The notes under the pieces: generated by a model
What the model was told of the DNA's origin: nothing
Seen by the model: only the letters and a program-made list of their open reading frames with translations
The model's database searches: none
Source of the DNA: Ruania rhizosphaerae
GTDB taxonomy: Bacteria; Actinomycetota; Actinomycetes; Actinomycetales; Beutenbergiaceae
NCBI RefSeq assembly: GCF_009805705.1
Contig: NZ_VSMB01000007.1
Location: 149,958-213,957, forward strand
Length of the DNA stretch: 64,000 nt
Direction: 5' to 3'
Made by a program: the position numbers and the translations under genes
In this document: piece after piece, positions 21,796 to 38,963 of the stretch
Position numbering within the stretch: the first letter of the stretch is position 1
Layout: each line of letters starts with the position of its first letter

Positions 21796-21983
21796 CAGGC
21801 GATTATCGCCCGTACGCCACCGTGAGCTGGAGCGCGGGGGTGACAGACATCTCAACGCCACCGGCGCCGTCAGGAATCCGACCTGGCTTGACACGCGGAG
21901 GTGACCTCGGAAGACTCCACTGAATCGTTCCATTCTTGCCGGCGGTGGCACTCGCCACGTCCGGAGTGCGGGAGTATTGAGGC

Positions 21984-23240
21984 ATGGTTCAGCGTCGAGT
22001 ACCCAAGGTGCGCGATCTCGCGCCTCTTTTGCAGTTCAAGCGTCCGGAGCTCGATGGGCGCAAGCGCCGCCTCGATGCGGCCTTGACGGTGGCCGATCTG
22101 CGCCACATCGCCCAGCGGCGCACACCCAAGGCCGCCTTCGACTACACCGAGGGTGCCGCCGAGCAGGAGCTTTCACTGGCCCGTGCCCGTCAGGCGTTCG
22201 AGGACATCGAGTTCCATCCCGCGATCCTGCGGGACGTCTCCCGCGTGGACACCGGCGTGGACATCCTCGGTGGACGGTCCGAGCTGCCGTTCGGGATCGC
22301 GCCCACGGGCTTCACCCGCATGATGCAGACCGAGGGCGAGATCGCCGGTGCCGGTGCCGCCGCCGCAGCCGGCATCCCGTTCTCCCTCTCGACCATGGGC
22401 ACCTCCTCCATTGAGGACGTCGCCGCCGCCAACCCCGCGGGGCGCAACTGGTTCCAGCTGTACATGTGGAAGGACCGGGACCGCTCGATGGCGCTGGTGA
22501 ACCGCGCCGCCGCAGCGGGCTTCGACACTCTGCTGGTGACTGTCGACGTGCCGGTGGCGGGCGCGCGTCTGCGGGACAAGCGCAACGGGATGACGATCCC
22601 GCCTTCGCTCAGCCTCAAGACCGTGATCAACGCGATCCCGCGGCCCGCGTGGTGGATTGACTTCCTCACCACCGAACCGCTCGCCTTCGCCTCCCTGGAC
22701 CGCTGGTCCGGCACCGTGGCGGAGTTGCTGGACACGATGTTCGACCCGACTGTGGACTTCGACGACCTCGCCTGGATCAGCAAGCAGTGGCCCGGCAAGG
22801 TCGTGGTCAAGGGCATCCAGACCCTCGAGGACGCCCGCCGTGTGGCCGAGCTCGGGGTGGACGGCATCGTGCTCTCCAACCACGGCGGCCGCCAGCTCGA
22901 CCGCGCCCCCATCCCGTTCCACCTGCTGCCCGAGGTGGCCACCGAGCTCGGCGACCAGCTGGAGATCATCCTCGACACCGGCATCATGAGCGGCGCGGAC
23001 ATCGTCGCCTCGCTCGCGCTCGGTGCCGACTTCACGCTTGTGGGTCGCGCCTACCTCTACGGCTTGATGGCCGGGGGCCGCGAGGGCGTGGACCGGATGA
23101 TCGAGATCCTTGGCTCCGAGGTTGAGCGCACGATGAAACTGCTCGGTGTCTCCTCCGTGGCCGAGCTCGAGTCCGAGCACGTGACGCAGCTGCGCCGGCT
23201 GCTGCCGGTCGAGCACGGGGTTCCCGCCCGCACCCGCTGA
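21984..23240 (+). CDS. lldD: FMN-dependent alpha-hydroxy acid dehydrogenase (L-lactate dehydrogenase type)
   Basis: A 418-residue flavoenzyme of the glycolate oxidase/LldD family, probably oxidising L-lactate or a related 2-hydroxy acid to the keto acid. The FMN barrel runs from about residue 45 ([17 protein letters not shown]) to the end. The catalytic His is His300 in SNHGGRQLD, and the substrate arginine follows in the same motif. The [13 protein letters not shown] and [12 protein letters not shown] segments are standard. GAGG precedes the ATG. Lactate would be made by the rhamnose pathway (lactaldehyde to lactate), giving a plausible metabolic link. The exact substrate is uncertain. Confidence 0.85.
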
Positions 23241-27161: not shown

Positions 27162-28193
27162 TCAGATAGCCGAGCCGCTGGAGGCGCGCACGACCAGCTC
27201 CGGTTCGAACTCCACCTGCCGTGAGCGCCCGGGCTCGCTCTCGCGCAGCAGCATGTCGGCCGCGGTCCAGCCGAGGGTATGCATCGGCTGGCGGACCGAG
27301 GTCAACGGCGTGGTGAGCATCGAGGCGAAGATGACGTCGTCATAGCCGACGACGGCCATGTCCCCCGGAATGGAGACGCCGCAGTCGCGTAGGGCTCGCA
27401 AGGCGCCCAGGGCGGTGAAGTCGTTCGCGCAGAACATGGCCGTCGGGCGTTCGGTCGTCTCGGCCAGCAACCGGTGGACGGCGGCGTCGGCGGCGTCGGC
27501 ATTGAGCGCATCGAGGTTCACCTCGACCAGGGCCTCGGCCGGGTCGAAGCCGCGGGAGGTCAGGGTGGCGATGACGCCGTCACGCCGGTCCACGCACTGG
27601 CGGAGTGTGAGCGGGCCGTTGAGGAACACGAACCTCGTGTGCCCCAGATCGAGCAGGTGGTTCATCGCCAGCGATGCTCCGCCGACGTCATCAACGGCCA
27701 CCGACCCGATCTCCGGAACCGGGGAGGTGTGGTCGAGCAGCACCACGTCGGTGCCGCGTTCACGCAGCGCCAGCAGCCCGTCCAAGCTGCCGTGAGAGGG
27801 GGTGGCGATGACACCCCGCACCCCGCGCTCCTCGAACAGGCGCAGGAATCTGGCCTCACGCTCGGGATCCTCATCGGAGCTGCACAGCATGAGCGTGTGG
27901 TCGTCCTGAGCGAGCCGGTCCTCGATCCCGCGCGCCATCTCGGTGAAGAACGGGTTCGCGATGTCGAGCACCACGGCACCGACGGTGGTGATCTCGCCAC
28001 TACGGAGCTGGCGGGCGGAGGCGTTCCGGACGAAGCGGAGCTCCCCGATGGCCTCCTCCACCTTGGCCCGGGTGGCGGGAGAGACGGAGTCGGGCCGGTT
28101 GAGGACGTTGGAGACCGTGCCGACAGAGACGCCTGCCTGCTTCGCCACATCGGTGACGCTCGGGCGTCTCGGGCCGCCGTTCCGCCTGGGCAT
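27162..28193 (-). CDS. LacI-family repressor, probably of the rhamnose operon
   Basis: A 343-residue LacI regulator from the ATG at 28193, with GAGGAGC upstream. The helix-turn-helix is residues about 12-60 (SVTDVAKQAGVSVGTVSNVLNRPDSVSPATRAKVEEAI), with the hinge ending ASARQLRSG and then the ligand domain with the normal MAVVGYDDVIFASMLTTPLTSVRQP signature. A palindromic site in its own upstream region shares nine contiguous bases (TGAAACGAT) with the palindrome overlapping the rhaI promoter 6 kb away. That shared motif makes it the likely rhamnose regulator, which is an inference from motif matching. Confidence 0.88.
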   Translation of the reverse strand: MPRRNGGPRRPSVTDVAKQAGVSVGTVSNVLNRPDSVSPATRAKVEEAIGELRFVRNASARQLRSGEITTVGAVVLDIANPFFTEMARGIEDRLAQDDHTLMLCSSDEDPEREARFLRLFEERGVRGVIATPSHGSLDGLLALRERGTDVVLLDHTSPVPEIGSVAVDDVGGASLAMNHLLDLGHTRFVFLNGPLTLRQCVDRRDGVIATLTSRGFDPAEALVEVNLDALNADAADAAVHRLLAETTERPTAMFCANDFTALGALRALRDCGVSIPGDMAVVGYDDVIFASMLTTPLTSVRQPMHTLGWTAADMLLRESEPGRSRQVEFEPELVVRASSGSAI

Positions 28194-28233: not shown

Positions 28234-28247
28234 GTGTATCGTTTCAC
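28234..28247. promoter_or_regulatory. LacI-type operator upstream of the regulator and PPTase gene
   Basis: GTGTATCGTTTCAC has 7-base half-sites meeting at CG, with five of seven positions symmetric. It lies in the divergent region between the LacI gene (start 28193) and the phosphopantetheinyl transferase (start about 28274). Its complement contains TGAAACGAT, as in the rhaI operator. It may mediate autoregulation and could also touch the PPTase promoter. Confidence 0.6.
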
Positions 28248-28273: not shown

Positions 28274-28789
28274 ATGACGGCGATGGCCGCCCCCGTGCCG
28301 ACCGGCATACCCATCAGTGTTCAGTGGCATCGTGCCGACCTCGGCACTGATGAGGCCCTGCGCCGCCACCTCGCCGACGACCTGATGCCCATGCCGGGAG
28401 CGGATCTGCGGATCGGTCACCTGTGCCCGCGATGCGGCGGCGCCGACCACGGCCGCCCGTGGGCGCGTGCCCGCGAGCGCACCATCGCCGTCTCGGCCGC
28501 GCGTGCCGGGGGGCACCTGGTGACCGCCGCTGGCCTCCCGCCCGTTCACCGGATCGGGGTCGATATCGAATGCGCTGACGCGGTACCCATCGACCCCACG
28601 CTCGTCCTGCACCGGGACGAGTCCGGTCAGGACGTCCTGCAGGTCTGGGTTGCGAAGGAGGCGATCCTGAAGATGCTCGGGGTGGGGCTCAGCGTGTCGA
28701 TGCCCTCGATCCGGGTGGCCGACTTCTCGGTGCACGATCTGCCCGCACCCGCGGGCCTTCTTGCGCGGGTGTGCGTGAACTCACCGTGA
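28274..28789 (+). CDS. 4'-phosphopantetheinyl transferase (Sfp superfamily)
   Basis: A 171-residue enzyme that moves the phosphopantetheine arm of coenzyme A onto the serine of carrier domains. The two metal/catalytic blocks are present: RIGVDIE at about residues 94-100 and WVAKEAILKMLGVGL at about 125-139. It is shorter than typical Sfp enzymes (about 220 or more), so the N-terminal pseudo-repeat is compact. The start could be the ATG at 28250, 28274 or 28283. The NRPS-like protein whose Ser552 would need this modification is encoded 1.3 kb away, a strong functional link. The gene converges on the M1 peptidase with a 9-base overlap. Confidence 0.85.
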   Translation: MTAMAAPVPTGIPISVQWHRADLGTDEALRRHLADDLMPMPGADLRIGHLCPRCGGADHGRPWARARERTIAVSAARAGGHLVTAAGLPPVHRIGVDIECADAVPIDPTLVLHRDESGQDVLQVWVAKEAILKMLGVGLSVSMPSIRVADFSVHDLPAPAGLLARVCVNSP

Positions 28790-30118
28790 CGCGGGCAGTG
28801 TGACCTCGTGGAGCCAGGCGTCGAAGAAGGCGCGCAGCGACCGTCCGCTGACCTCCTCGGCCAACGCGAGGAAGTCCTCGGTGCAGACGACCCCACCGCG
28901 GTGCTGCGCGACCCAGCGGCGCAGCAGCTGCCCGAAGTCCTCGGCACCGATCAGGTCCCGCAGGGCCGCCAGCGTCAGCGCCCCGCGCTTGTAGACGCGA
29001 TCGTCGAACATGTCCGCCGCACCCGGATCGCTGAGCCGCAGATCCTGGGGCAGCGCGCTGAGCCGAGCGTGCTCGCGGGCCGCATGCTCGGCGATCCCCG
29101 GACCACCGGAGTGCTCGGACCACACCCATTCGCTGAAGCAGGCGAACCCTTCGTGCAGCCAGATGTCCTGCCAGGAGCTCGCCGTGACGGCGTTGCCGAA
29201 CCACTGGTGGGACAGCTCGTGCGCGATGAGCCGGACGGCGTCCCAGTCCGCCGAGCAGTGGTTGCGTCCGAAGGTCGAGAGGGCCTGTGACTCGAGCGGG
29301 ATCTCCAACGGGTCGTCGGTGATCACACACGAGTAGGAGTCGAAGGGGTAGGGCCCGAACGCGTCCTCGAAGCACGTCAGCATCTCGCGCTGCCGGCCGA
29401 AGGACGCCGCGAAAGCGTCCGTGGGCAGTCCCTCCGGCCGGAGGATCCGGATCGGTACGCCGGGTCCGTCCAGCGACTGCTCGCGGTACTTCCCTATCTG
29501 CACCGAGGCCAGGTACGGAGCCATCGGGTGGCGCTGCTGGAACGTCCATGTCCGCCGTGAGCCACGGCGTCTCACCTCCCGCGTCTCACCGCTGAAGGCC
29601 ACGGTGTAGTCGGCGGGCAGGGTGAGGTGCACGTCGTAGCTGGCCTTGTCCCGCGCCTGGTCGTTGCACGGGAACCACGACGGCGACCCGTGCGGCTGCG
29701 AGGCCACGATCACCCCGTCGGTCAGCTCCTCCCAGCCTGCCTCGCCCAGGGTGGCCGAGCGCACCGGCCTGGGGTTGCCCCCGTACTCGATGCGGACGAC
29801 GAGCTCCGACCCGGCGGGTGCGGGCTTCTTCAGGGTGACGGTGAGCCGCTTCGGCTTGCGGGTGTACTTGCCGAGCGTGGCGCCCGTCACGGACACCTTC
29901 GTCACGCGCAGCTCGTGCAGGTCGAAGCGCAGTGCGGAGGTGTCGGTGAGGGTGTGCAGCCGCACCTCGGCCACGCCGTCGAGCAGGTTGCTGCGGGGTT
30001 GATAGGTCAGGTCCAACTGGTAATGGTCGACGGCGTAGCGCGGGTCGCCATGGTCGGGCATGTACGTATCGGTCGTGCCGGGTGTAACGGGCGTCTCGGG
30101 GGTGTGCGTTCGCGTCAC
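28781..30118 (-). CDS. M1-family zinc metallopeptidase
   Basis: A 445-residue gluzincin aminopeptidase. The zinc motif HELSH is at residues 300-304 in LIAHELSHQWFGN, with the third ligand Glu in WLHEGFACFSEW about 20 residues on. The N-terminal part (YQLDLTYQPRSNLLDGVAEVRL) is the beta-saddle domain of M1 enzymes. It lacks the long C-terminal helical domain of PepN, so it belongs to the short M1 form. There is no signal peptide. The GTG at 30118 overlaps the stop of the NRPS-like gene (GTGA), so the two are co-translated. Its substrate may be the product of that enzyme (inference). Confidence 0.9.
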   Translation of the reverse strand: MTRTHTPETPVTPGTTDTYMPDHGDPRYAVDHYQLDLTYQPRSNLLDGVAEVRLHTLTDTSALRFDLHELRVTKVSVTGATLGKYTRKPKRLTVTLKKPAPAGSELVVRIEYGGNPRPVRSATLGEAGWEELTDGVIVASQPHGSPSWFPCNDQARDKASYDVHLTLPADYTVAFSGETREVRRRGSRRTWTFQQRHPMAPYLASVQIGKYREQSLDGPGVPIRILRPEGLPTDAFAASFGRQREMLTCFEDAFGPYPFDSYSCVITDDPLEIPLESQALSTFGRNHCSADWDAVRLIAHELSHQWFGNAVTASSWQDIWLHEGFACFSEWVWSEHSGGPGIAEHAAREHARLSALPQDLRLSDPGAADMFDDRVYKRGALTLAALRDLIGAEDFGQLLRRWVAQHRGGVVCTEDFLALAEEVSGRSLRAFFDAWLHEVTLPASR

Positions 30119-33100
30119 GCCTCCTCCTCCCAGGGGCCGATCGGGTTGCCGAGCCACCGGGTGCGGCTCGGTACGGATTCACCGCGCATCACCAGGGAGG
30201 CGGGCCCTACTGTGGCATCACGGTCGAGATGCGCAGCAGGCAGGATCACACTGTTCGGCCCGAGAGTGGCTCCGGCGCCGATGACCACGCGGTCCATGGC
30301 GAGCACACGGTCGTGGAACAGATGGGTCTGGACCACGCATCCGGCGTTGATGCATGATCCTGCGCCCAGCTCGACCAGATCCGGTTCGGGAAGCCAGTAC
30401 GTATCGCACCAGACGCCGTCACCGATCTTTGCCCCCATGGCGCGGAACCACACGTTCAGGGCGACGGTGCCCTGCGCCAGGGAGCAGAACCAACGCGCGG
30501 CGAGAACTTCGGTGAACGTGTCCGCCAACTCACCGCGCCACACAGCCCCGCTCCAGAGCGGGTGCTCACTGACCCGGTGCGTACCCACCAGGAGCCACTT
30601 CGCGGCCACGGTGATCCCCGCGGCGATCAGACCGGCGAGCAGGAGGACCAGCGGGCCCAGCAGCACTGCGGCGATGAGGCCCGTCCAGGACCAGGGTTCA
30701 CCGGCCGACCCTCCGAGGAGCACCAGCAGTGCGGTGCCCACGACGAGCATGAGGCACACGGAGCCGAACAGGGGGATCACCCGGCCCGTCTCGACCAGTC
30801 CGCGCAGCACTCGCAGGCGGGTGCTCGGTTCATAGGTGCGCGTCTCGTCGGCCGGCCCGCCCTCGCGGCGCAGCTGGGTGGGCGGGCTACCGATCCACGA
30901 CGTCCCCGCCCGCGCGGTGCCGCGCTTGGGTGCCGCGGAGAGGACGGCCACGAGGGAGGCCTTCGGGATCTTCCGCCCGGGTGCGGCCATCCCGGAGTTG
31001 CCGAGGAAGGCGCGCTTGCCGATCTTCACGCGTTCGGCTCGCAGCCAACCACCGGTGAGCTCGTAGCCGCCCACGAGGGTGTCGTCCGCGAGGAAGGACT
31101 GGTCGCCGATCTGCGTCAGCTTCGGGATCAACACCACCGTGGAGGCCTCGACGCCGCGGCCCACACGGGCGCCGAGTGCTCGCAGCCACCACGGCGTGAG
31201 TGCTCCGGCATACAACGGAAAGAGCCAGTCGCGGGCTTCGTCCATGAGCCGTACCGTGGCCCACACCGCCAGACCCCGCCCGGAGCGGACGGGCACCGGG
31301 CCGCTCCGGACGGCCGGGGCGAGGATCCGCACGACGGCGATGACGAGGATCATCAACGTCGCGTAGCCGGCCAGTGCGGCCAGTGGCAGCCACGGCCACA
31401 CTTTCGCCCACGCGTGGCTCAGGTCCGTCGTGGTACGAAGCACCGGCCACAGCACCAGCGCACCGACCGCGGCGGCGCACCAGGGCAGGGCGGCCAGGAG
31501 CATGCCGATGACGGCGTAGCCCGCCACCCAGGCGCGACCACCGGCCGGGGCTCGCTTCGACCAGGGCCCCCGGGCGGAGCCGGTGACCTCAGCGGGAGAT
31601 CCGGAGACCAGCCGCTCGGCCCGCACCCTGCCGGCGACGAACGATCCCGCAGCCACTTCGGCGCCCCGGCCCACTGTGGCGCCTGGGCCGAGCGTGCTCC
31701 GGGCACCGATCCGCGCCCGGGCGGCGATCGAGATCCGGCCCAGATGCACCCGGTCACCGTCGATCCATGCACCGGTCAGGTCCACCTCGGGTTCGACGCA
31801 GGCGCGTTTGCCGATCCGGAGGAACCCGGTGACTGGCGGCAGGGAGTGCAGATCCACGTTCGAGGCGATCTTGGCGCCGAGCAGGCGGGCGTACCACGTG
31901 ATCGAGGCGGCACCGGCGAGACCCGTCGCAGCCAGTTCATCCTGGATCCGGCCGGCCAGCCAGTACCGCAGATGGACCTTCCCGCCGCGGGGGTAGGTGC
32001 CCGGCTGGATGCCACGCAGCACCACCCGGATCAGCCCGGCCGCGACGAGCATCCGGCCCTGCGGGAGGACGAACAGTGCGGTGGTCACGACCACCAGCCA
32101 GATCGGGGGCGCCGGCCACCAGCCGAGTACCGGGTGCAGCAGCGCGCCGGCGAGCAGCAGCCAGGCGATCCATCGCAGCGTCGCCAGTGCGCGCAGCGGG
32201 TAGAAGGCGAGGATCTGCCCCACCTTCGTCCTCGTGCGGATGGGGGAGACCGCGCGGTTCGTGCGTGTGGTGGTCGTGCTTGACTGGACGAGGCTGTCCA
32301 GATATGCCGATAGTGCGCCCAGGGTCGGGTAGGCGTAGATGTCGCCGACGGCGACCTCCGGATGGCGTGCCCGGATCCGCCCGACGGTCTGTGCCGCGGT
32401 GAGCGAACCGCCGCCGAGGTCGAAGAAGTCCGCTCCGGCGTCGGCCGGATCCGCGGCGAGTACATCGCGCCAGATGCCCACCAGCCACTCCTGGGTGGGT
32501 GACCATCGTGCGGTCGTGCTCGGTGTGCTGGGCAGCGGCCACGGCAGCGCGTCCCGGTCCACCTTGCCGGAGGTGCGGGTGGGAAGGGTGTCGACCACGG
32601 CGAGGCGCGGCACCAGTGCCGCTGGCATGCGCTCGCGCAGCAGAGCGAGTGCGGCGCTCTGATCGAAGGTCTCCTCGACGGTGAGGTAGCCGACCAGCAC
32701 CTGGTTGCCGGCGGAGGTCTCGCGCACGGCAGCGGCGGCGCCGGCCACCCCGGCCAGTCGCAGCAGTTGGCCATCGATCTCGCCGAGCTCGATCCGTCGG
32801 CCGCCGAGCTTGATCTGATCGTCGGCCCGCCCGGCGAAGACCAGGCCGGCCGGGTCGTTCCTGACCAGATCGCCTGAGCGGTACCCGCGCGCCCAGCCCA
32901 GGGTGGGCACCGGCGCGTACTTCTCAGCGTCCTTGTCCGGATCGAGGTAGCGGGCCAGTCCCACGCCGCCGATGATCAACTCACCGGTCTCACCTTCGGC
33001 CACCGGGACGCCGTCGTGATCGACGACGGCGAGGTCCCACCCGTCCAGCGGCAGTCCGATCCGGACCGGCTCGGACCCGTCCAGGGGTGCTGCGCATGCC

Positions 33101-34059
33101 ACCACAGTGGCCTCGGTCGGGCCGTAGGTGTTCCACACCTCGCGGCCGGGCCCTTGCAGCCGGGCGGCGAGCTCGGCCGGTGCCGCCTCGCCGCCGAGGA
33201 TCACCAGCCGGACACGATCCAGCGACGCTGGTGGCCACAGCGCCACCAGGGTGGGCACCGTGGAGACGATGGTGATGTCGTTGGCCGTCAGCCACGGCCC
33301 GACGTCCACACCGGAGCGCACCAGCGAGCGTGGCGCGGGGACGAGGCAGGCGGCGTGCGCCCAGGCGAGCCACATCTCCTCACAACTGGCATCGAAACCG
33401 ACCGAGAGCCCGGCCATCACCCGGTCTCTCGGACCGATCGGGTCGGCGGTGAGGAAGAGACGGGATTCGGCATCGACGAAGGCGGCGGCACTGCGGTGGG
33501 AGACGGCGACGCCCTTCGGCGTTCCGGTGGAACCCGAAGTGAAGATGATCCACGCGTCATCGGCAGGGCGTGGGGTCCGCTCGGGTGCTTCTGCGGGCGA
33601 AGGTGCGCCGTGGACGCCAGGGGGAGGGCCGCCGTCGGGGGTGGTGAACTGCACCGTGGGAGCGGTGGCCGTGATCTCGAGACTGTTGCCGATGATGGCG
33701 ATCACGGCAGCCTCGGTGAAGACGGTGCGCGCCCGCTCCGGCGGGTCATCCGCATCGACCGGCACGTAGGCGGCGCCGGCCATCAGAGTGCCCAAGATCG
33801 CGACGTACAGCTCCGTGGTTCCGGAGCTGACCCGCACCCCCACCCGATCGCCGCGGCGCACACCGAGGGTGGTGAGCCGGTCGGCCAGGTCCGCAGCAGC
33901 TTCGGCGAGTTCGCGGTACGAGAGCTGGGTGAGGCCGCTGTCGAGGGCGGGGGCCTCGGGATGGGCGTTCACGGAGTCCGTGAAGATGTCCATCAGGGTG
34001 CGGGGCGGGGTGGCGCGGTCGGAGGCGAGCAGCGAGGGCAGCAAGCTGGCGGCGGGCAC
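30115..34059 (-). CDS. Pls/PosA-type NRPS-like membrane protein (A-T-beta-helix)
   Basis: A 1314-residue protein. Residues about 20-510 are an adenylation domain (IIFTSGSTGTPKGVAVSHR, NTYGPTEATV, GRADDQIKLGGRRIELGEID, PTRTSGKVDRDALP). Residues about 525-595 are a carrier domain with Ser552 in FFDLGGGSL. The remaining 700 residues alternate about six membrane helices with three left-handed beta-helix (hexapeptide) blocks, the last ending in the C-terminal EEEA. This layout is that of the Pls/PosA family, whose best-known relative is epsilon-poly-lysine synthetase. There is no condensation or thioesterase domain. It probably activates an amino acid and transfers or polymerises it at the membrane; the product is unknown. 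It is coupled to the M1 peptidase and near a PPTase. Confidence 0.9.
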   Translation of the reverse strand: MPAASLLPSLLASDRATPPRTLMDIFTDSVNAHPEAPALDSGLTQLSYRELAEAAADLADRLTTLGVRRGDRVGVRVSSGTTELYVAILGTLMAGAAYVPVDADDPPERARTVFTEAAVIAIIGNSLEITATAPTVQFTTPDGGPPPGVHGAPSPAEAPERTPRPADDAWIIFTSGSTGTPKGVAVSHRSAAAFVDAESRLFLTADPIGPRDRVMAGLSVGFDASCEEMWLAWAHAACLVPAPRSLVRSGVDVGPWLTANDITIVSTVPTLVALWPPASLDRVRLVILGGEAAPAELAARLQGPGREVWNTYGPTEATVVACAAPLDGSEPVRIGLPLDGWDLAVVDHDGVPVAEGETGELIIGGVGLARYLDPDKDAEKYAPVPTLGWARGYRSGDLVRNDPAGLVFAGRADDQIKLGGRRIELGEIDGQLLRLAGVAGAAAAVRETSAGNQVLVGYLTVEETFDQSAALALLRERMPAALVPRLAVVDTLPTRTSGKVDRDALPWPLPSTPSTTARWSPTQEWLVGIWRDVLAADPADAGADFFDLGGGSLTAAQTVGRIRARHPEVAVGDIYAYPTLGALSAYLDSLVQSSTTTTRTNRAVSPIRTRTKVGQILAFYPLRALATLRWIAWLLLAGALLHPVLGWWPAPPIWLVVVTTALFVLPQGRMLVAAGLIRVVLRGIQPGTYPRGGKVHLRYWLAGRIQDELAATGLAGAASITWYARLLGAKIASNVDLHSLPPVTGFLRIGKRACVEPEVDLTGAWIDGDRVHLGRISIAARARIGARSTLGPGATVGRGAEVAAGSFVAGRVRAERLVSGSPAEVTGSARGPWSKRAPAGGRAWVAGYAVIGMLLAALPWCAAAVGALVLWPVLRTTTDLSHAWAKVWPWLPLAALAGYATLMILVIAVVRILAPAVRSGPVPVRSGRGLAVWATVRLMDEARDWLFPLYAGALTPWWLRALGARVGRGVEASTVVLIPKLTQIGDQSFLADDTLVGGYELTGGWLRAERVKIGKRAFLGNSGMAAPGRKIPKASLVAVLSAAPKRGTARAGTSWIGSPPTQLRREGGPADETRTYEPSTRLRVLRGLVETGRVIPLFGSVCLMLVVGTALLVLLGGSAGEPWSWTGLIAAVLLGPLVLLLAGLIAAGITVAAKWLLVGTHRVSEHPLWSGAVWRGELADTFTEVLAARWFCSLAQGTVALNVWFRAMGAKIGDGVWCDTYWLPEPDLVELGAGSCINAGCVVQTHLFHDRVLAMDRVVIGAGATLGPNSVILPAAHLDRDATVGPASLVMRGESVPSRTRWLGNPIGPWEEEA

Positions 34060-34174: not shown

Positions 34175-34188
34175 CTGAATCGTTTCAG
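34175..34188. promoter_or_regulatory. LacI-type operator of the rhamnose operon
   Basis: CTGAATCGTTTCAG is symmetric at 12 of 14 positions around a central CG. It starts five bases after the -10 box, so it covers the transcription start. Its complement shares TGAAACGAT with the site at 28234-28247 next to the LacI gene at 27162-28193. Confidence 0.75.
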
Positions 34189-34237: not shown

Positions 34238-35416
34238 ATGACCACCTCGGCCACCGCCGCCCCGCAGGTACGTGAAGCCCTCGCCGCCCAGACCATCGAG
34301 CTCCCCTCGTGGGCGTTCGGCAACTCCGGCACCCGGTTCAAGGTGTTCTCGACCCCCGGGGTGCCGCGCGATCCCTTCGAGAAGATCGCCGACGTCGCCC
34401 AGGTGCACGCCTATACCGGCGCTGCGCCGCGGGTCTCCCTGCACATCCCGTGGGATCTGGTGGACGATTACGAGGCGCTCGCTGCACATGCGAGCGATCT
34501 CGGTGTGCAGATCGGGGCGATCAACTCCAACCTGTTCCAGGAGGACATCTACAAGCTCGGCTCGCTCACCCATGTCGACCCCGCCGTGCGCCGGAAGGCG
34601 ATTGACCACCACAAGCAGTGCATCGACGTGATGCGCGCGACCGGGTCCACCGACCTCAAGCTCTGGCTCCCCGACGGCACCAACTACGCCGGCCAGGACG
34701 ACATCCGGGGCCGGCAGGATCGCCTCGCCGAGTCCCTGCAGGAGATCTACGCCGCACTCGACCCGAACCACCGGCTGCTGATCGAGTACAAGTTCTTCGA
34801 GCCGTACTTCTACACGATGGACATCCCCGACTGGGGCACCTCGCTGGTGCACTGCCTGGCCCTCGGCGACCAAGCCGCCGTCGTGCTCGATACCGGCCAC
34901 CACGCGCCGGGGACGAACATCGAGTTCATCGTCGCCCAGCTGGTGCGGCTCGGGAAGCTCGGCGCGTTCGACTTCAACTCCCGCAACTATGCCGATGACG
35001 ATCTCATCGTCGGCGCCGCGGACCCCTTCCAGCTGTTCCGGATCATGAACGAGATCGTCACCAATGACGCGCTGAAGGCGGAAGCGGGCGTGAACTTCAT
35101 GCTCGACCAGTGCCACAACATCGAGCCGAAGATCCCTGGCCAGATTCGCTCGGTCATGAACGTTCAGGAAGCCACGGCCAAGGCACTGATCGTCGACCGC
35201 GAAGCCCTGCGCGAGGCGCAGATCTCCGGTGACGTGCTCGGTGCCAACGCCGTGCTGATGGACGCCTACAACACCGACGTGCGCCCGCTGCTCGCCGAGA
35301 TCCGCGCCGAGAAGGGGCTGGCCGAAGACCCCTACGCCGCCTTCAACGCCTCCGGATACCTCGACCAGATCGCCGCCGAGCGGGTCGGCGGGCAGCAGGC
35401 CGGCTGGGGCGCCTGA
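34238..35416 (+). CDS. rhaI: L-rhamnose isomerase (TIM-barrel, RhaI type)
   Basis: A 392-residue isomerase converting L-rhamnose to L-rhamnulose. It is of the Pseudomonas/actinobacterial type rather than the E. coli RhaA sequence type. Recognisable blocks include ELPSWAFGNSGTRFKVF near the start, DLKLWLPDGTNYAGQDDIRGRQ, the metal-site segment LLIEYKFFEPYFYTMDIPDWGTS, and LDTGHHAPGTNIEFIV. The ATG at 34238 is chosen by homology and length. It heads rhaI-aldolase/dehydrogenase-rhaB. The promoter and LacI operator upstream are clear. Confidence 0.95.
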   Translation: MTTSATAAPQVREALAAQTIELPSWAFGNSGTRFKVFSTPGVPRDPFEKIADVAQVHAYTGAAPRVSLHIPWDLVDDYEALAAHASDLGVQIGAINSNLFQEDIYKLGSLTHVDPAVRRKAIDHHKQCIDVMRATGSTDLKLWLPDGTNYAGQDDIRGRQDRLAESLQEIYAALDPNHRLLIEYKFFEPYFYTMDIPDWGTSLVHCLALGDQAAVVLDTGHHAPGTNIEFIVAQLVRLGKLGAFDFNSRNYADDDLIVGAADPFQLFRIMNEIVTNDALKAEAGVNFMLDQCHNIEPKIPGQIRSVMNVQEATAKALIVDREALREAQISGDVLGANAVLMDAYNTDVRPLLAEIRAEKGLAEDPYAAFNASGYLDQIAAERVGGQQAGWGA

Positions 35417-35466: not shown

Positions 35467-37503
35467 ATGACGAACCAGGCAGTCACCGACCTGATCACCC
35501 GTTCCAACCGCCTCGGCGCCGACCCGCGCAACACCAACTACGCCGGCGGCAACACCTCCGCCAAGGGGTCCGAGACCGACCCTGTGACCGGCGAGCAGAT
35601 CGAACTGTGCTGGGTGAAGGGGTCCGGCGGGGACCTCGGCACCCTGAAGGCGTCCGGCTTGGCCGTGCTTCGCCTGGACCGGCTGCGCTCGCTCGTCGAC
35701 GTCTACCCCGGCCTGGACCGCGAGGACGAGATGGTCGCTGCCTTCGACTACTGCCTGCACGGCAAGGGCGGCGCGGCGCCGAGCATCGACACGGCCATGC
35801 ACGGACTGGTGGACGCCCCGCACGTCGATCACCTGCACCCCGACTCCGGCATCGCGATCGCCACCGCCGCCGACGGCGAGGCCCTGACCTCGACCATCTT
35901 CGGCGACCGGGTGGTCTGGGTGCCGTGGCGCCGCCCCGGGTTCCAGTTGGGGCTTGATATCGCCGCGATCAAGGAGAAGAACCCGCAGGCGATCGGCTGC
36001 GTCCTCGGCGGCCACGGCATCACCGCCTGGGGTGAGACCTCCGAGGAGGCGGAGGCGAACTCCCTGGAGATCATTCACACCGCCGAGTCCTACATCGCCG
36101 CCCACGGCAAGGCTGACCCGTTCGGCGCCGTCCGGCCCGGCTACGAGGCGCTCCCCGAGGCCGAGCGCCGCGCGAAGGCGGCTGCGCTCGCCCCGACCAT
36201 CCGGGGCATTGCCTCCACGGATGCTCCGCAGATCGGGCACTTCACCGATTCCGACGTCGTCCTGGACTTTCTCGCGAGCGAGAAGCTCGCCCCGCTGGCC
36301 GAACTCGGCACCTCCTGCCCGGACCACTTCCTGCGCACCAAGGTCAAGCCGCTCGTAGTTGACCTGCCCGCCGACGCCCCGGTCGAGGACGTGGTGGCAC
36401 GGCTGGAGGAACTGCACGAGACCTACCGCGCCGACTACGCCGGCTACTACGACCGCCATGCCAGTGCGGACTCACCGGCGATGCGCGGTGCGGATCCGGC
36501 CATCGTGCTCGTGCCCGGCGTCGGGATGTTCTCCTTCGGCAAGAACAAGCAGACCGCCCGCGTGGCCGGTGAGTTCTACGTGAACGCCATCAACGTGATG
36601 CGCGGCGCCGAGTCACTCTCCACCTACGCCCCGATCGAGGAGTCCGAGAAGTTCCGGATCGAGTACTGGGCACTCGAGGAGGCCAAGCTCCAGCGGATGC
36701 CGAAGCCGAAGGCCCTGGCCACCCGCGTCGCCCTGGTGACCGGTGCGGCTTCCGGGATCGGAAAGGCCATCGCCACGCGACTGGCTGCTGAGGGGGCGTG
36801 CGTCGTCATCGCCGACCTCAACCTGGAAGCGGCCCAGGAGGTCGCCGACGAGCTCGGTGGCTCCGACGTCGCTGCGGCCGTGGCGTGCGACGTGACCGAC
36901 GAGGCGCAGGTCAGCGCCCTCATCGACGCCGCCTCACTCGCCTTCGGTGGTGTGGACCTCGTGGTCAACAACGCCGGCCTGTCGATCTCCAAGCCGCTGC
37001 TGGAAACCTCCGTCAAGGACTGGGACCTGCAGCATGATGTGATGGCCCGGGGCTCCTTCCTGGTGGCCCGCGAAGCCGCCCGGGCGCTGATCGCTCAGAA
37101 GCTCGGCGGCGACATCGTCTACATCGCGTCCAAGAACTCCCTGTTCGCCGGCCCGAACAACATCGCCTACTCGGCCACCAAGGCCGACCAGGCCCATCAG
37201 GTGCGCCTGCTCGCGGCCGAGCTCGGTGAGCACGGTGTGCGCGTGAACGGCATCAACCCTGACGGTGTGGTCCGCGGCTCCGGCATCTTCGCCGGCGGCT
37301 GGGGCGCCAAGCGGGCTGCCGTCTACGGCGTCAAGGAGGAGGAGCTGGGCCAGTACTACGCCCAGCGCACGCTACTCAAGCGCGAGGTGCTTCCCGAGCA
37401 CGTCGCCGCCGCGGTTTTCGCCCTCACCGGCGGGGACCTCAGCCAGACCACCGGTCTGCACATCCCGGTCGATTCCGGGGTGGCGGCCGCGTTCCTGCGC
37501 TGA
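35467..37503 (+). CDS. rhaEW: Bifunctional rhamnulose-1-phosphate aldolase / lactaldehyde dehydrogenase
   Basis: A 678-residue natural fusion (RhaEW/YuxG type). Residues about 1-415 are a class II aldolase that splits rhamnulose 1-phosphate into dihydroxyacetone phosphate and L-lactaldehyde; the metal site shows DHLHPDSG and LGGHGITAWGET. Residues about 418-678 are a short-chain dehydrogenase with the nucleotide loop GAASGIGKA and the catalytic YSATKADQ, which oxidises lactaldehyde to lactate. The fusion lets the toxic aldehyde be passed on directly (known for the family). It lies 50 bases after rhaI and overlaps rhaB by one base (TGATG). Confidence 0.93.
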   Translation: MTNQAVTDLITRSNRLGADPRNTNYAGGNTSAKGSETDPVTGEQIELCWVKGSGGDLGTLKASGLAVLRLDRLRSLVDVYPGLDREDEMVAAFDYCLHGKGGAAPSIDTAMHGLVDAPHVDHLHPDSGIAIATAADGEALTSTIFGDRVVWVPWRRPGFQLGLDIAAIKEKNPQAIGCVLGGHGITAWGETSEEAEANSLEIIHTAESYIAAHGKADPFGAVRPGYEALPEAERRAKAAALAPTIRGIASTDAPQIGHFTDSDVVLDFLASEKLAPLAELGTSCPDHFLRTKVKPLVVDLPADAPVEDVVARLEELHETYRADYAGYYDRHASADSPAMRGADPAIVLVPGVGMFSFGKNKQTARVAGEFYVNAINVMRGAESLSTYAPIEESEKFRIEYWALEEAKLQRMPKPKALATRVALVTGAASGIGKAIATRLAAEGACVVIADLNLEAAQEVADELGGSDVAAAVACDVTDEAQVSALIDAASLAFGGVDLVVNNAGLSISKPLLETSVKDWDLQHDVMARGSFLVAREAARALIAQKLGGDIVYIASKNSLFAGPNNIAYSATKADQAHQVRLLAAELGEHGVRVNGINPDGVVRGSGIFAGGWGAKRAAVYGVKEEELGQYYAQRTLLKREVLPEHVAAAVFALTGGDLSQTTGLHIPVDSGVAAAFLR

Positions 37504-38963
37504 TGCCTGGGCCGGCAGCCTTCGCGGCGGTCGATCTGGGCGCCACCTCCGGGCGGGTCATCCGCGCGGAGGTGGCTGGGACCTCCGACGGCGTGGTGTT
37601 GCGTGAGGTGGCGAGGTTTCCCAACGCAGCCACGGCGGATGACGGCGGAACGTTGCGTTGGCACCTCACCGCCCTCTTTGAGGAGGTGCTCGAGGGGTTG
37701 CGGGCGGCCGGTGAGGCAGGGCCGCTCGACGGGATCGGGATCGACACGTGGGCAGTCGACTACGGGCTGCTGGATGCTGACGGCCAGCTGCTCGCCGAGC
37801 CGGTCGCCTACCGCGACCCGCGCACCGAGGCGGTGATCGACGACGTCCACACGAGAGTTCCGCCGTCGGACCTGTACGCCGTCTCGGGGATGCAGCACTT
37901 GCCGTTCAACACGGTCTACCAGCTGGCTGCCGAGCAGCGCGGTCCGCTGTGGGGCCGTGCCGAGCAGGCGCTGTTGCTGCCGGACCTTCTCGCTTACTGG
38001 CTCACCGGCGCGCGGGTGAGTGAGTACACGAACGCGTCCAGCACGGCGCTGCTGGACCAGCGCACCGGCCAGTGGTCGGGTGAGTTGATGGATCGGCTCG
38101 CGATCCCGGCGGGCCTGTTCCCTCCGGTCGTCCATCCGGGGGAGCAGATCGGGGTGCTGAGCGAGGAGATCCAGCGTCGTACCGGCCTCGGCCCCGTGCC
38201 CGTCTACGCCGTCGGATCGCACGACACCGCCTCAGCAGTGGCCTCGGTTCCGGCCGAGACGAGCGATTTCGCCTACATCTCCTCCGGTACGTGGTCGTTG
38301 GTGGGGGTGGAACTCGAGGAACCGGTGCTCACCGAGGCCAGCCGCGAAGCCAACTTCACCAACGAGCGCGGCGTCGACGGCACCGTCCGGTACCTGCGCA
38401 ACGTGATGGGCTTGTGGGTCCTGTCCGAATCCCAGCGGGTCTGGGACGAGCGTGGGCAAGGTATCCCGATCGGGCCGCTGCTGCAGGCGGCAGCTGAGGA
38501 AGCGCCGCGCCGGACGATCATCGACGTCGACCACCCGGACTTCCTGCCGCCCGGTGACATGCCTGCGCGGCTGGCCGAGCACGCCGCTGCGACTGGGCAG
38601 CCAGTGCCCGAGACACCCGCACAGGTGGCGCGATGCGTCATCGATTCCCTCGCGGTGGCCTACCGGAAGGCCATCGAGGACGCTCAACGTCTCTCCGGGC
38701 AGCGTGTGCCGGTGATCCACGTGGTCGGTGGTGGGTCGAAGAACGAGCTGCTGTGCCAGGCCACGGCGGATGCGACCGGCCTGCCGGTGATCGCCGGGCC
38801 CGAGGAGGGCACGGCACTCGGGAACGTGCTGGTGCAGGCGCGTGCTGCCGGAGTGCTCGCCGGCGACCTCACCGCCCTGCGCGCCGTCGGAGCCCGCGGG
38901 CTCGAGCTGCGCCGCTACGAACCGGATGCCTCCGAGCGCGAGGCGTGGGCCGCCGTCGGCTGA
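37503..38963 (+). CDS. rhaB: Rhamnulokinase
   Basis: A 486-residue FGGY-family kinase phosphorylating L-rhamnulose at O1. The N-terminal ATPase motif is FAAVDLGATSGRVIRAEV (residues about 7-24), with the ATSGR form typical of RhaB. DGIGIDTWAVDYGLLD and VGSHDTASAVASVPA follow, then YISSGTWSLVGVE and HVVGGGSKNELLCQATAD. The start overlaps the previous stop by one base. It is the last gene of the rhamnose operon here; the mutarotase lies 6.4 kb downstream in another cluster. Confidence 0.95.
   Translation: MPGPAAFAAVDLGATSGRVIRAEVAGTSDGVVLREVARFPNAATADDGGTLRWHLTALFEEVLEGLRAAGEAGPLDGIGIDTWAVDYGLLDADGQLLAEPVAYRDPRTEAVIDDVHTRVPPSDLYAVSGMQHLPFNTVYQLAAEQRGPLWGRAEQALLLPDLLAYWLTGARVSEYTNASSTALLDQRTGQWSGELMDRLAIPAGLFPPVVHPGEQIGVLSEEIQRRTGLGPVPVYAVGSHDTASAVASVPAETSDFAYISSGTWSLVGVELEEPVLTEASREANFTNERGVDGTVRYLRNVMGLWVLSESQRVWDERGQGIPIGPLLQAAAEEAPRRTIIDVDHPDFLPPGDMPARLAEHAAATGQPVPETPAQVARCVIDSLAVAYRKAIEDAQRLSGQRVPVIHVVGGGSKNELLCQATADATGLPVIAGPEEGTALGNVLVQARAAGVLAGDLTALRAVGARGLELRRYEPDASEREAWAAVG

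What the first reader, a model, noticed from the sequence alone, without database searches (positions are those of the whole stretch)
28274..34059. Pls/PosA-type NRPS-like protein with its own PPTase and a co-translated M1 peptidase
A 1314-residue adenylation-carrier-membrane-beta-helix protein shares a 4-base start/stop overlap with an M1 metallopeptidase gene. A phosphopantetheinyl transferase that could load its carrier serine (Ser552) converges on them. Architecture alone (seen) places the big protein in the Pls/PosA family, whose known member makes epsilon-poly-lysine. There is no condensation or release domain, so the enzyme may transfer one amino acid or make a homopolymer at the membrane. 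The peptidase could trim, recycle or give immunity to the product. I infer a three-gene peptide-tailoring system of unknown product.
Basis: partly seen in the sequence, partly recalled or inferred. Interest (0 to 1): 0.75.

Follow-up and report, generated by a model that had tools for sequence, protein, structure and literature searches.

The report
Epsilon-polylysine synthetase, loader and degrader cassette
This stretch of a bacterial genome, most likely from a Ruania species, carries three adjacent genes that are predicted to make the natural antimicrobial epsilon-poly-L-lysine, to switch its synthetase on, and likely to protect the cell from the product; the synthetase-peptidase pair is already known from Streptomyces and Corynebacterium, while the attached activating gene and the rhamnose-gene setting are the less familiar parts.

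Summary
In detail: a Pls/PosA-type synthetase (34059-30115, minus), an M1 peptidase sharing GTGA with its stop (start 30118), and a phosphopantetheinyl transferase (PPTase, 28274-28789) converging on them. The 'unknown product' reading does not hold. The adenylation pocket reads DAESIGTVVK, identical to the solved S. albulus epsilon-poly-L-lysine synthase, in the window and all 80 relatives compared. The M1 gene is the positional counterpart of PldII, the published polylysine-degrading enzyme translationally coupled to pls. The core is therefore a new member of a known kind. Beyond the papers I could search: a convergent PPTase lies beside 25 of 78 examinable relatives (24 of 33 Micrococcales plus Propionibacteriales, 0 of 42 Mycobacteriales). 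In eight same-genus genomes the three genes are together present (4) or together absent (4), and the four empty sites place the block between two operator-like palindromes of a LacI/rhamnose locus. Rhamnose control of polylysine is a testable, unproven reading.

The parts
30115..34059 (-). Pls/PosA-type NRPS-like synthetase, 1314 aa, predicted epsilon-poly-L-lysine synthetase
   Evidence: TIGR02353 637.8 bits; best solved chain 7wew, S. albulus epsilon-poly-L-lysine synthase, 607 bits; 50% identical to an annotated Streptomyces Pls
32527..34011 (-). adenylation domain, residues 17-511, pocket DAESIGTVVK
   Evidence: alignment to 7wew; pocket in 81 of 81 sequences
32299..32490 (-). carrier (PP-binding) domain, residues 524-587, Ser552 codon 32404-32406
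   Evidence: PF00550 47.4 bits; Ser in 81 of 81
30139..32217 (-). C-terminal membrane and acyltransferase-like region, residues 615-1307; invariant His1246 and His1249 in the third strand-rich domain
   Evidence: TIGR02353 stretch; model pLDDT 84; weak fold matches; conservation; hydrophobic segments
30115..30118 (-). GTGA start/stop overlap, with a GGAGGAGGAGG run just upstream of the GTG
   Evidence: sequence
28781..30118 (-). two-domain M1 metallopeptidase, 445 aa, PldII-like; HELSH at residues 300-304, Glu323
   Evidence: Pfam; model pLDDT 93 best matching the two-domain Deinococcus M1 enzyme; invariant residues in 39 aligned sequences
28274..28789 (+). phosphopantetheinyl transferase, 171 aa, convergent with the M1 gene
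   Evidence: PF01648; same place in 25 of 78 examinable relatives; motifs HGRP, GVDIE, WVAKEAILK
27162..28193 (-). LacI-family regulator flanking the block (ORF open to 28274; ATG at 28193 preferred)
   Evidence: Pfam; retained in all eight same-genus genomes examined; start codon
28235..28246 (.). operator-like palindrome TGTATCGTTTCA, 27 bp before the PPTase ATG
34176..34187 (.). operator-like palindrome TGAATCGTTTCA, between pls and rhaI, 117 bp from the pls start
34238..35416 (+). rhaI, L-rhamnose isomerase, flanking gene and marker of the empty site
   Evidence: TIGR02635 603.3 bits; ATG read; same-genus loci

Best explanation
The block is a likely epsilon-poly-L-lysine cassette: a membrane synthetase predicted to polymerise L-lysine, a peptidase whose start codon overlaps the synthetase's stop and which is predicted to cut the polymer, and a phosphopantetheinyl transferase predicted to load the synthetase. 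Shown by sequence: domain order, the pocket DAESIGTVVK, carrier Ser552, the GTGA overlap, the M1 zinc motif, the convergent PPTase, and joint presence or absence of the three genes in the genus. Inferred: the PPTase puts phosphopantetheine on Ser552; the A domain activates L-lysine onto it; the C-terminal acyltransferase-like domains, perhaps the third with invariant His1246, join lysines through the epsilon amine at the membrane; the peptidase, made in step with the synthetase, limits chain length and stray product and so protects the producer, as published for PldII. Possible and untested: control by the flanking LacI/rhamnose regulator.
For: Pls/PosA model 637.8 bits. Best solved chain is the S. 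albulus epsilon-poly-L-lysine synthase; pocket identical in 81 of 81. M1 downstream in 79 of 80 relatives within 800 bp. Annotated Streptomyces pls with the same 4-base M1 overlap. Published: pldII coupled to pls, repression lowers tolerance and lengthens chains (PMC9223678 passages); a C. variabile homologue with a peptidase gene in its operon made epsilon-PL of 26-35 residues in S. coelicolor (PMC8117764 Results). PPTase in the same convergent place in 25 of 78, and in the same 4 of 8 same-genus genomes as pls and M1.
Against: No product, activity or expression was shown here. 53 of 78 relatives lack the PPTase beside pls, and C. variabile pls worked in S. coelicolor with no added PPTase mentioned in the section read, so a private PPTase is not generally needed. 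The same gene gave no product in C. variabile culture or C. glutamicum. The M1 protein has no visible signal or membrane segment, while PldII is reported outside the membrane. The M1 protein is only 38% identical to the Streptomyces one. PMC9223678 calls PldII endo-type and also describes stepwise cutting from the N-terminus, so its mode is unsettled.
Confidence: 0.82

Rival explanations
1. The synthetase makes a different cationic homopolymer: beta-lysine, ornithine, diaminobutyrate or diaminopropionate.
For: The family makes all of these, and close homologues can differ in substrate (PMC10522769 passages).
Against: Pocket DAESIGTVVK equals that of the lysine enzyme 7wew. Published pockets for ornithine (DMEHNGTVSK) and beta-lysine (DGESISVVNK) differ; a diaminobutyrate-type homologue reads DFECLSAVTK and has transaminase and kinase neighbours, no M1 gene.
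Confidence: 0.07
2. The enzyme transfers single lysines to an acceptor at the membrane and makes no polymer.
For: The C-terminal half resembles hexapeptide acyltransferases, and no product is shown.
Against: It aligns end to end, 50% identical, with an annotated epsilon-PL synthase, and homologues with the same pocket type make polymer.
Confidence: 0.06
3. The PPTase is a general-purpose enzyme that merely sits beside the operon and is not specific to the synthetase.
For: Absent beside pls in 53 of 78 examinable relatives; it converges, so it is not in the pls transcript; G000 has an additional stand-alone carrier it could serve.
Against: Same place and orientation in 24 of 33 loci of two orders; found in the 4 pls-bearing and none of the 4 pls-free rha loci of the genus; in G001, G003 and G005 the Pls carrier is the only PF00550 match besides one small stand-alone carrier.
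Confidence: 0.2
4. The two palindromes serve only the rhamnose genes and lacI, and the block was inserted there without coming under their control.
For: Both sites exist without the block in the four empty-site genomes; the rhaI-side site sits just downstream of a TTGACG/TAATCT promoter-like pair that reads towards rhaI, 117 bp from the pls start.
Against: The lacI-side site lies 27 bp before the PPTase ATG in the window.
Confidence: 0.65

Closest known systems
pls-pldII operon of Streptomyces albulus (epsilon-poly-L-lysine synthetase and type II degrading enzyme)
   Same: Domain order, lysine pocket, M1-type peptidase gene directly downstream and translationally coupled
   Different: A convergent PPTase lies beside the window operon; none was found beside the annotated Streptomyces pls in L178. 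The S. albulus locus itself was not available.
pls-peptidase operon of Corynebacterium variabile (PMC8117764)
   Same: Synthetase and peptidase in an operon; lysine pocket; product proven in a heterologous host
   Different: No PPTase is mentioned in that paper (0 occurrences of 'phosphopantetheinyl')
PosA, delta-poly-L-ornithine synthetase of Acinetobacter baumannii (PMC10522769)
   Same: Same family and architecture
   Different: Pocket DMEHNGTVSK; single-gene operon without neighbours
Two-domain M1 metallopeptidase of Deinococcus radiodurans (6a8z, 6iff)
   Same: Best sequence and fold match for the M1 protein, TM 0.86-0.90, two domains only
   Different: 31% identity; any synthetase link of that enzyme was not looked for

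Membership tests
Pls/PosA cationic homopoly(amino acid) synthetase | A domain, T domain and the family's C-terminal domain in one chain | tested here: met
   TIGR02353, AMP-binding and PP-binding
Pls/PosA cationic homopoly(amino acid) synthetase | No canonical condensation or thioesterase domain | tested here: met
   Pfam lists four families, neither among them
Epsilon-poly-L-lysine synthetase (Pls) | Lysine pocket as in S. albulus Pls | tested here: met
   DAESIGTVVK at all ten positions
Epsilon-poly-L-lysine synthetase (Pls) | Makes epsilon-poly-L-lysine | not testable with these tools
   needs expression and mass spectrometry
PldII-type degrading enzyme | Gene directly downstream of pls with translational coupling | tested here: met
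   GTGA overlap; 79 of 80 relatives adjacent
PldII-type degrading enzyme | Metallo-aminopeptidase fold with active-site residues | tested here: met
   M1 domain, HExxH and Glu323 invariant in 39 sequences, fold
PldII-type degrading enzyme | Located outside the cell membrane | tested here: inconclusive
   No signal or membrane segment by hydropathy; no dedicated predictor was run
PldII-type degrading enzyme | Degrades epsilon-polylysine | not testable with these tools
   needs an enzyme assay
Sfp-type phosphopantetheinyl transferase | PPTase signature motifs | tested here: met
   PF01648 over cut-off; GVDIE and WVAKEAILK; the motif definition is recalled
Sfp-type phosphopantetheinyl transferase | Activates the Pls carrier | not testable with these tools
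   needs a loading assay
LacI-type RhaR regulon of Actinomycetales | LacI-family regulator with palindromic operators before rhamnose genes | tested here: inconclusive
   Sites conserved; such a regulator is published (PMC3870299 passages), but orthology and motif identity were not compared

The most novel reading that the evidence does not exclude
A self-contained polylysine cassette (synthetase, private PPTase, immunity peptidase) sits between the two operators of a rhamnose LacI repressor and has been captured by it, so that the repressor switches both outer genes, pls and the PPTase: Ruania would make its antimicrobial polymer in response to rhamnose.
Probability: 0.22. Interest if true: 0.55.

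Novelty: new member of a known kind. Interest (0 to 1): 0.35.

Why it matters
Epsilon-polylysine is used as a food preservative, and at least one actinobacterial carrier of pls (C. variabile) stayed silent in culture. A conserved companion PPTase is a concrete reason to co-express it when such genes are tested, and the rhamnose-operator setting offers a cheap induction test outside Streptomyces. Why the companion PPTase is frequent in Micrococcales and Propionibacteriales but absent in the 42 Mycobacteriales loci examined is a small evolutionary question. If only the core holds, it adds one more genus to a known system.

Tried and rejected
Rejected: product of unknown kind (pocket equal to the lysine enzyme). 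Rejected: M1 as a chance neighbour (79 of 80). Tried without a clear result: whether genomes lacking the adjacent PPTase have another. Of 27 genomes asked for, 26 were searched (L024 not held); 8 of 9 such Micrococcales/Propionibacteriales genomes have at least two PF01648 loci, one (G016) has one; the Pfam model also misses some adjacent PPTases that my profile finds (G020 shows only one locus), so the question stays open. C-terminal model: confident (pLDDT 84), but whole-model PDB matches are weak (7 with E <= 0.001, query TM at most 0.17 in the 50 listed), mostly hexapeptide acyltransferases such as serine acetyltransferase, GlmU and LpxD. The 1-in-70 chance per gene for co-occurrence is not used, because the genomes are related. 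The start choice picks the start nearest to a 4-base overlap, so 45 of 81 with a 4-base and 16 of 81 with a 1-base overlap (L005 and L007 included in the 81) lean towards overlaps. Dropped rows: the L044 PPTase hit (E 0.0054); L002, L003 and L006, reversed or own-genome copies; L037 and L058, too short downstream. Some rows were left out of the alignments given to the structure tool: A1 holds the window and 36 of the 80 loci, A2 the window and 38 of the 80. Checked after drafting: the convergent gene next to the M1 gene in L178 is no match to the PPTase profile, nor is anything in the four block-free rha loci or in the second PF01648 locus of G006.

Literature: searches for a PPTase tied to polylysine synthetase (2 papers; 0; 2) and for polylysine with rhamnose or LacI (494 papers, 10 listed) showed no relevant paper among those listed; the single PPTase mention in PMC4361855 is a genome-wide statistic (passages), the two papers were seen as listings only. 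Searches listed 20 of 1,100, 48 and 650. One search asked for Ruania or polylysine; its 8 listed of 8,129 held no Ruania, so it says nothing. The library is open access only; Yamanaka 2010, the primary pldII paper, is not held.
Full report
Observation. The three genes are present as described. The synthetase runs from GTG 34059 to the stop at 30115 on the minus strand, 1314 aa, and scores 637.8 bits against the NCBIfam Pls/PosA model TIGR02353, cut-off 423.1. [quoted passage not shown] The M1 gene can start at GTG 30118, sharing GTGA with the synthetase stop, just behind a GGAGGAGGAGG run. The PPTase, ATG 28274 to 28789 on the plus strand, 171 aa, converges on the peptidase, whose stop codon is at 28781.

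Host. The closest M1 homologue outside the window's own cluster is from Ruania halotolerans, 77% (P0002). That protein's longest contig, 4,270,413 bases, has the length of the contig of G005, one of seven other genomes of the same genus. I infer that the window is from Ruania. The genome has one TIGR02353 match over the cut-off and one weak fragment.

Substrate. The best-matching solved chain is 7wew, the epsilon-poly-L-lysine synthase adenylation domain (607 bits). The ten pocket residues (223, 224, 227, 266, 287, 289, 311, 319, 320, 499) read DAESIGTVVK, the same as in the 7wew alignment, and are identical in all 81 sequences compared: the window and the 80 best of at least 579 relatives. 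These 80 are close relatives, so the sameness is partly a matter of choice. The pocket positions follow the usual GrsA-based code, which I recalled. PMC10522769 gives Ala at the second position for lysine enzymes, Met for the ornithine enzyme and Phe for the diaminopropionate and diaminobutyrate types (passages). A diaminobutyrate-type homologue fetched as a contrast reads DFECLSAVTK and is followed by a diaminobutyrate transaminase and an aspartate kinase, with no M1 gene in the stretch.

Peptidase. In 79 of 80 relatives an M1 homologue begins within 800 bp downstream on the same strand; in L059 it begins about 2.2 kb downstream. The pairing is published. In S. albulus pldII is translationally coupled to pls, and repressing it lowers tolerance to epsilon-PL and lengthens the chains (PMC9223678, passages). 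In C. [quoted passage not shown] coelicolor, though not in C. variabile culture or C. glutamicum (PMC8117764, Results section). An annotated Streptomyces pls overlaps an M1 gene by four bases; the window proteins are 50% (synthetase) and 38% (M1) identical to that pair. The M1 model (pLDDT 93) best matches the two-domain Deinococcus enzyme. Glu276, His300, Glu301, His304 and Glu323 are invariant in the 39 sequences aligned. No signal or membrane segment is visible by hydropathy, so the reported outside location of PldII is not confirmed for this protein.

PPTase. An iterated profile finds a PPTase convergent with the M1 gene in 25 of 80 relatives. Of 78 loci with at least 900 bp downstream, the counts are 14 of 18 Micrococcales, 10 of 15 Propionibacteriales, 0 of 42 Mycobacteriales, 0 of 2 Pseudonocardiales and 1 of 1 unplaced MAG. 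I assigned the orders from genus names by recall; three negatives (L040, L097, L100) have only 1.4-1.6 kb downstream. The annotated Streptomyces locus L178 has none. The protein carries HGRP, GVDIE and WVAKEAILK, which I recall as the signature regions of the family. In G000 the only other PF01648 match looks like AcpS by its span. In G001, G003 and G005 the Pls carrier is one of only two PF00550 matches, the other being a stand-alone one; G000 has two stand-alone ones.

Unit behaviour and site. Of eight same-genus genomes, the synthetase over the cut-off, the close M1 homologue and the local PPTase occur in the same four (G000, G001, G003, G005) and not in the other four. G006 has a second PF01648 locus elsewhere, but it does not match the PPTase profile; G004 is a 92% complete draft. 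In the four without the block, the flanking LacI gene and rhaI are neighbours, about 0.24 kb apart in G006 and 1.0-1.2 kb in G002, G004 and G007 by alignment ends. What fills that 1 kb was not examined. Single-gene trees put the block-free G006 among or next to the bearers, which fits loss of the whole block there, but repeated gain is not excluded.

Operators. TGAAWCGWTTCA with up to one mismatch occurs three times in the window against 0.05 expected: at 34176 before rhaI, at 28235 between lacI and the PPTase, and at 21921 before an FMN-dependent dehydrogenase gene. The rhaI-side site is exact in 8 of 8 genomes; the lacI-side site is present with one mismatch in 7 of 8, not in G005; the dehydrogenase-side site is present in the 7 genomes whose stretch covers it. 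In bearers the block lies between the first two sites. In the 80 relatives' loci, 1.79 Mb, the pattern occurs 3 times. A LacI-type RhaR of Actinomycetales is published (PMC3870299, passages). That the repressor now controls pls and the PPTase is a proposal: the 34176 site follows a promoter-like TTGACG/TAATCT pair reading towards rhaI and may serve rhaI alone.

Joining chemistry. The C-terminal 725 residues model at pLDDT 84 with three strand-rich regions between helices; hydrophobic segments lie at 653-674, 843-874, 889-922, 1088-1121 and 1122-1159. Foldseek matches are weak and mostly hexapeptide acyltransferases, in line with the published description of three acetyltransferase-related domains and six membrane helices. 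His1246 and His1249 in QTHLFHDR of the third domain are invariant in 81 of 81; the diaminobutyrate-type homologue keeps the first and has Glu for the second. His738 in the first domain is also invariant. From the alignment, compared by eye, I infer that the third domain is the likeliest condensing site; this was not tested.

Verdict. The core is a new member of a known kind: an epsilon-polylysine synthetase with its PldII-type peptidase. The conserved companion PPTase and the place between rhamnose operators are modest additions that I did not find in the papers searched.

Noticed in passing
window 21921-21932 and 21984-23240: A third operator-like palindrome stands before an FMN-dependent dehydrogenase gene (Pfam FMN_dh), perhaps for the lactate made from rhamnose; present in the 7 same-genus genomes whose stretch covers it.
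   Followed up: partly
window 35467-37503: Two-domain class II aldolase plus short-chain dehydrogenase protein, the layout of the published RhaEW enzyme of rhamnose catabolism (PMC3870299 passages), followed by an FGGY-type kinase at 37503-38963.
   Followed up: no
L140, L141, L143 (G002, G004, G007), lacI-rhaI gap: About 1 kb of other sequence fills the lacI-rhaI gap in three block-free genomes, so this site may be a recurrent insertion spot.
   Followed up: no
G000:C12:18642-18833: An extra stand-alone carrier domain (PF00550, 115-codon frame) in the window's genome; G001, G003 and G005 have one stand-alone carrier, G000 two.
   Followed up: no
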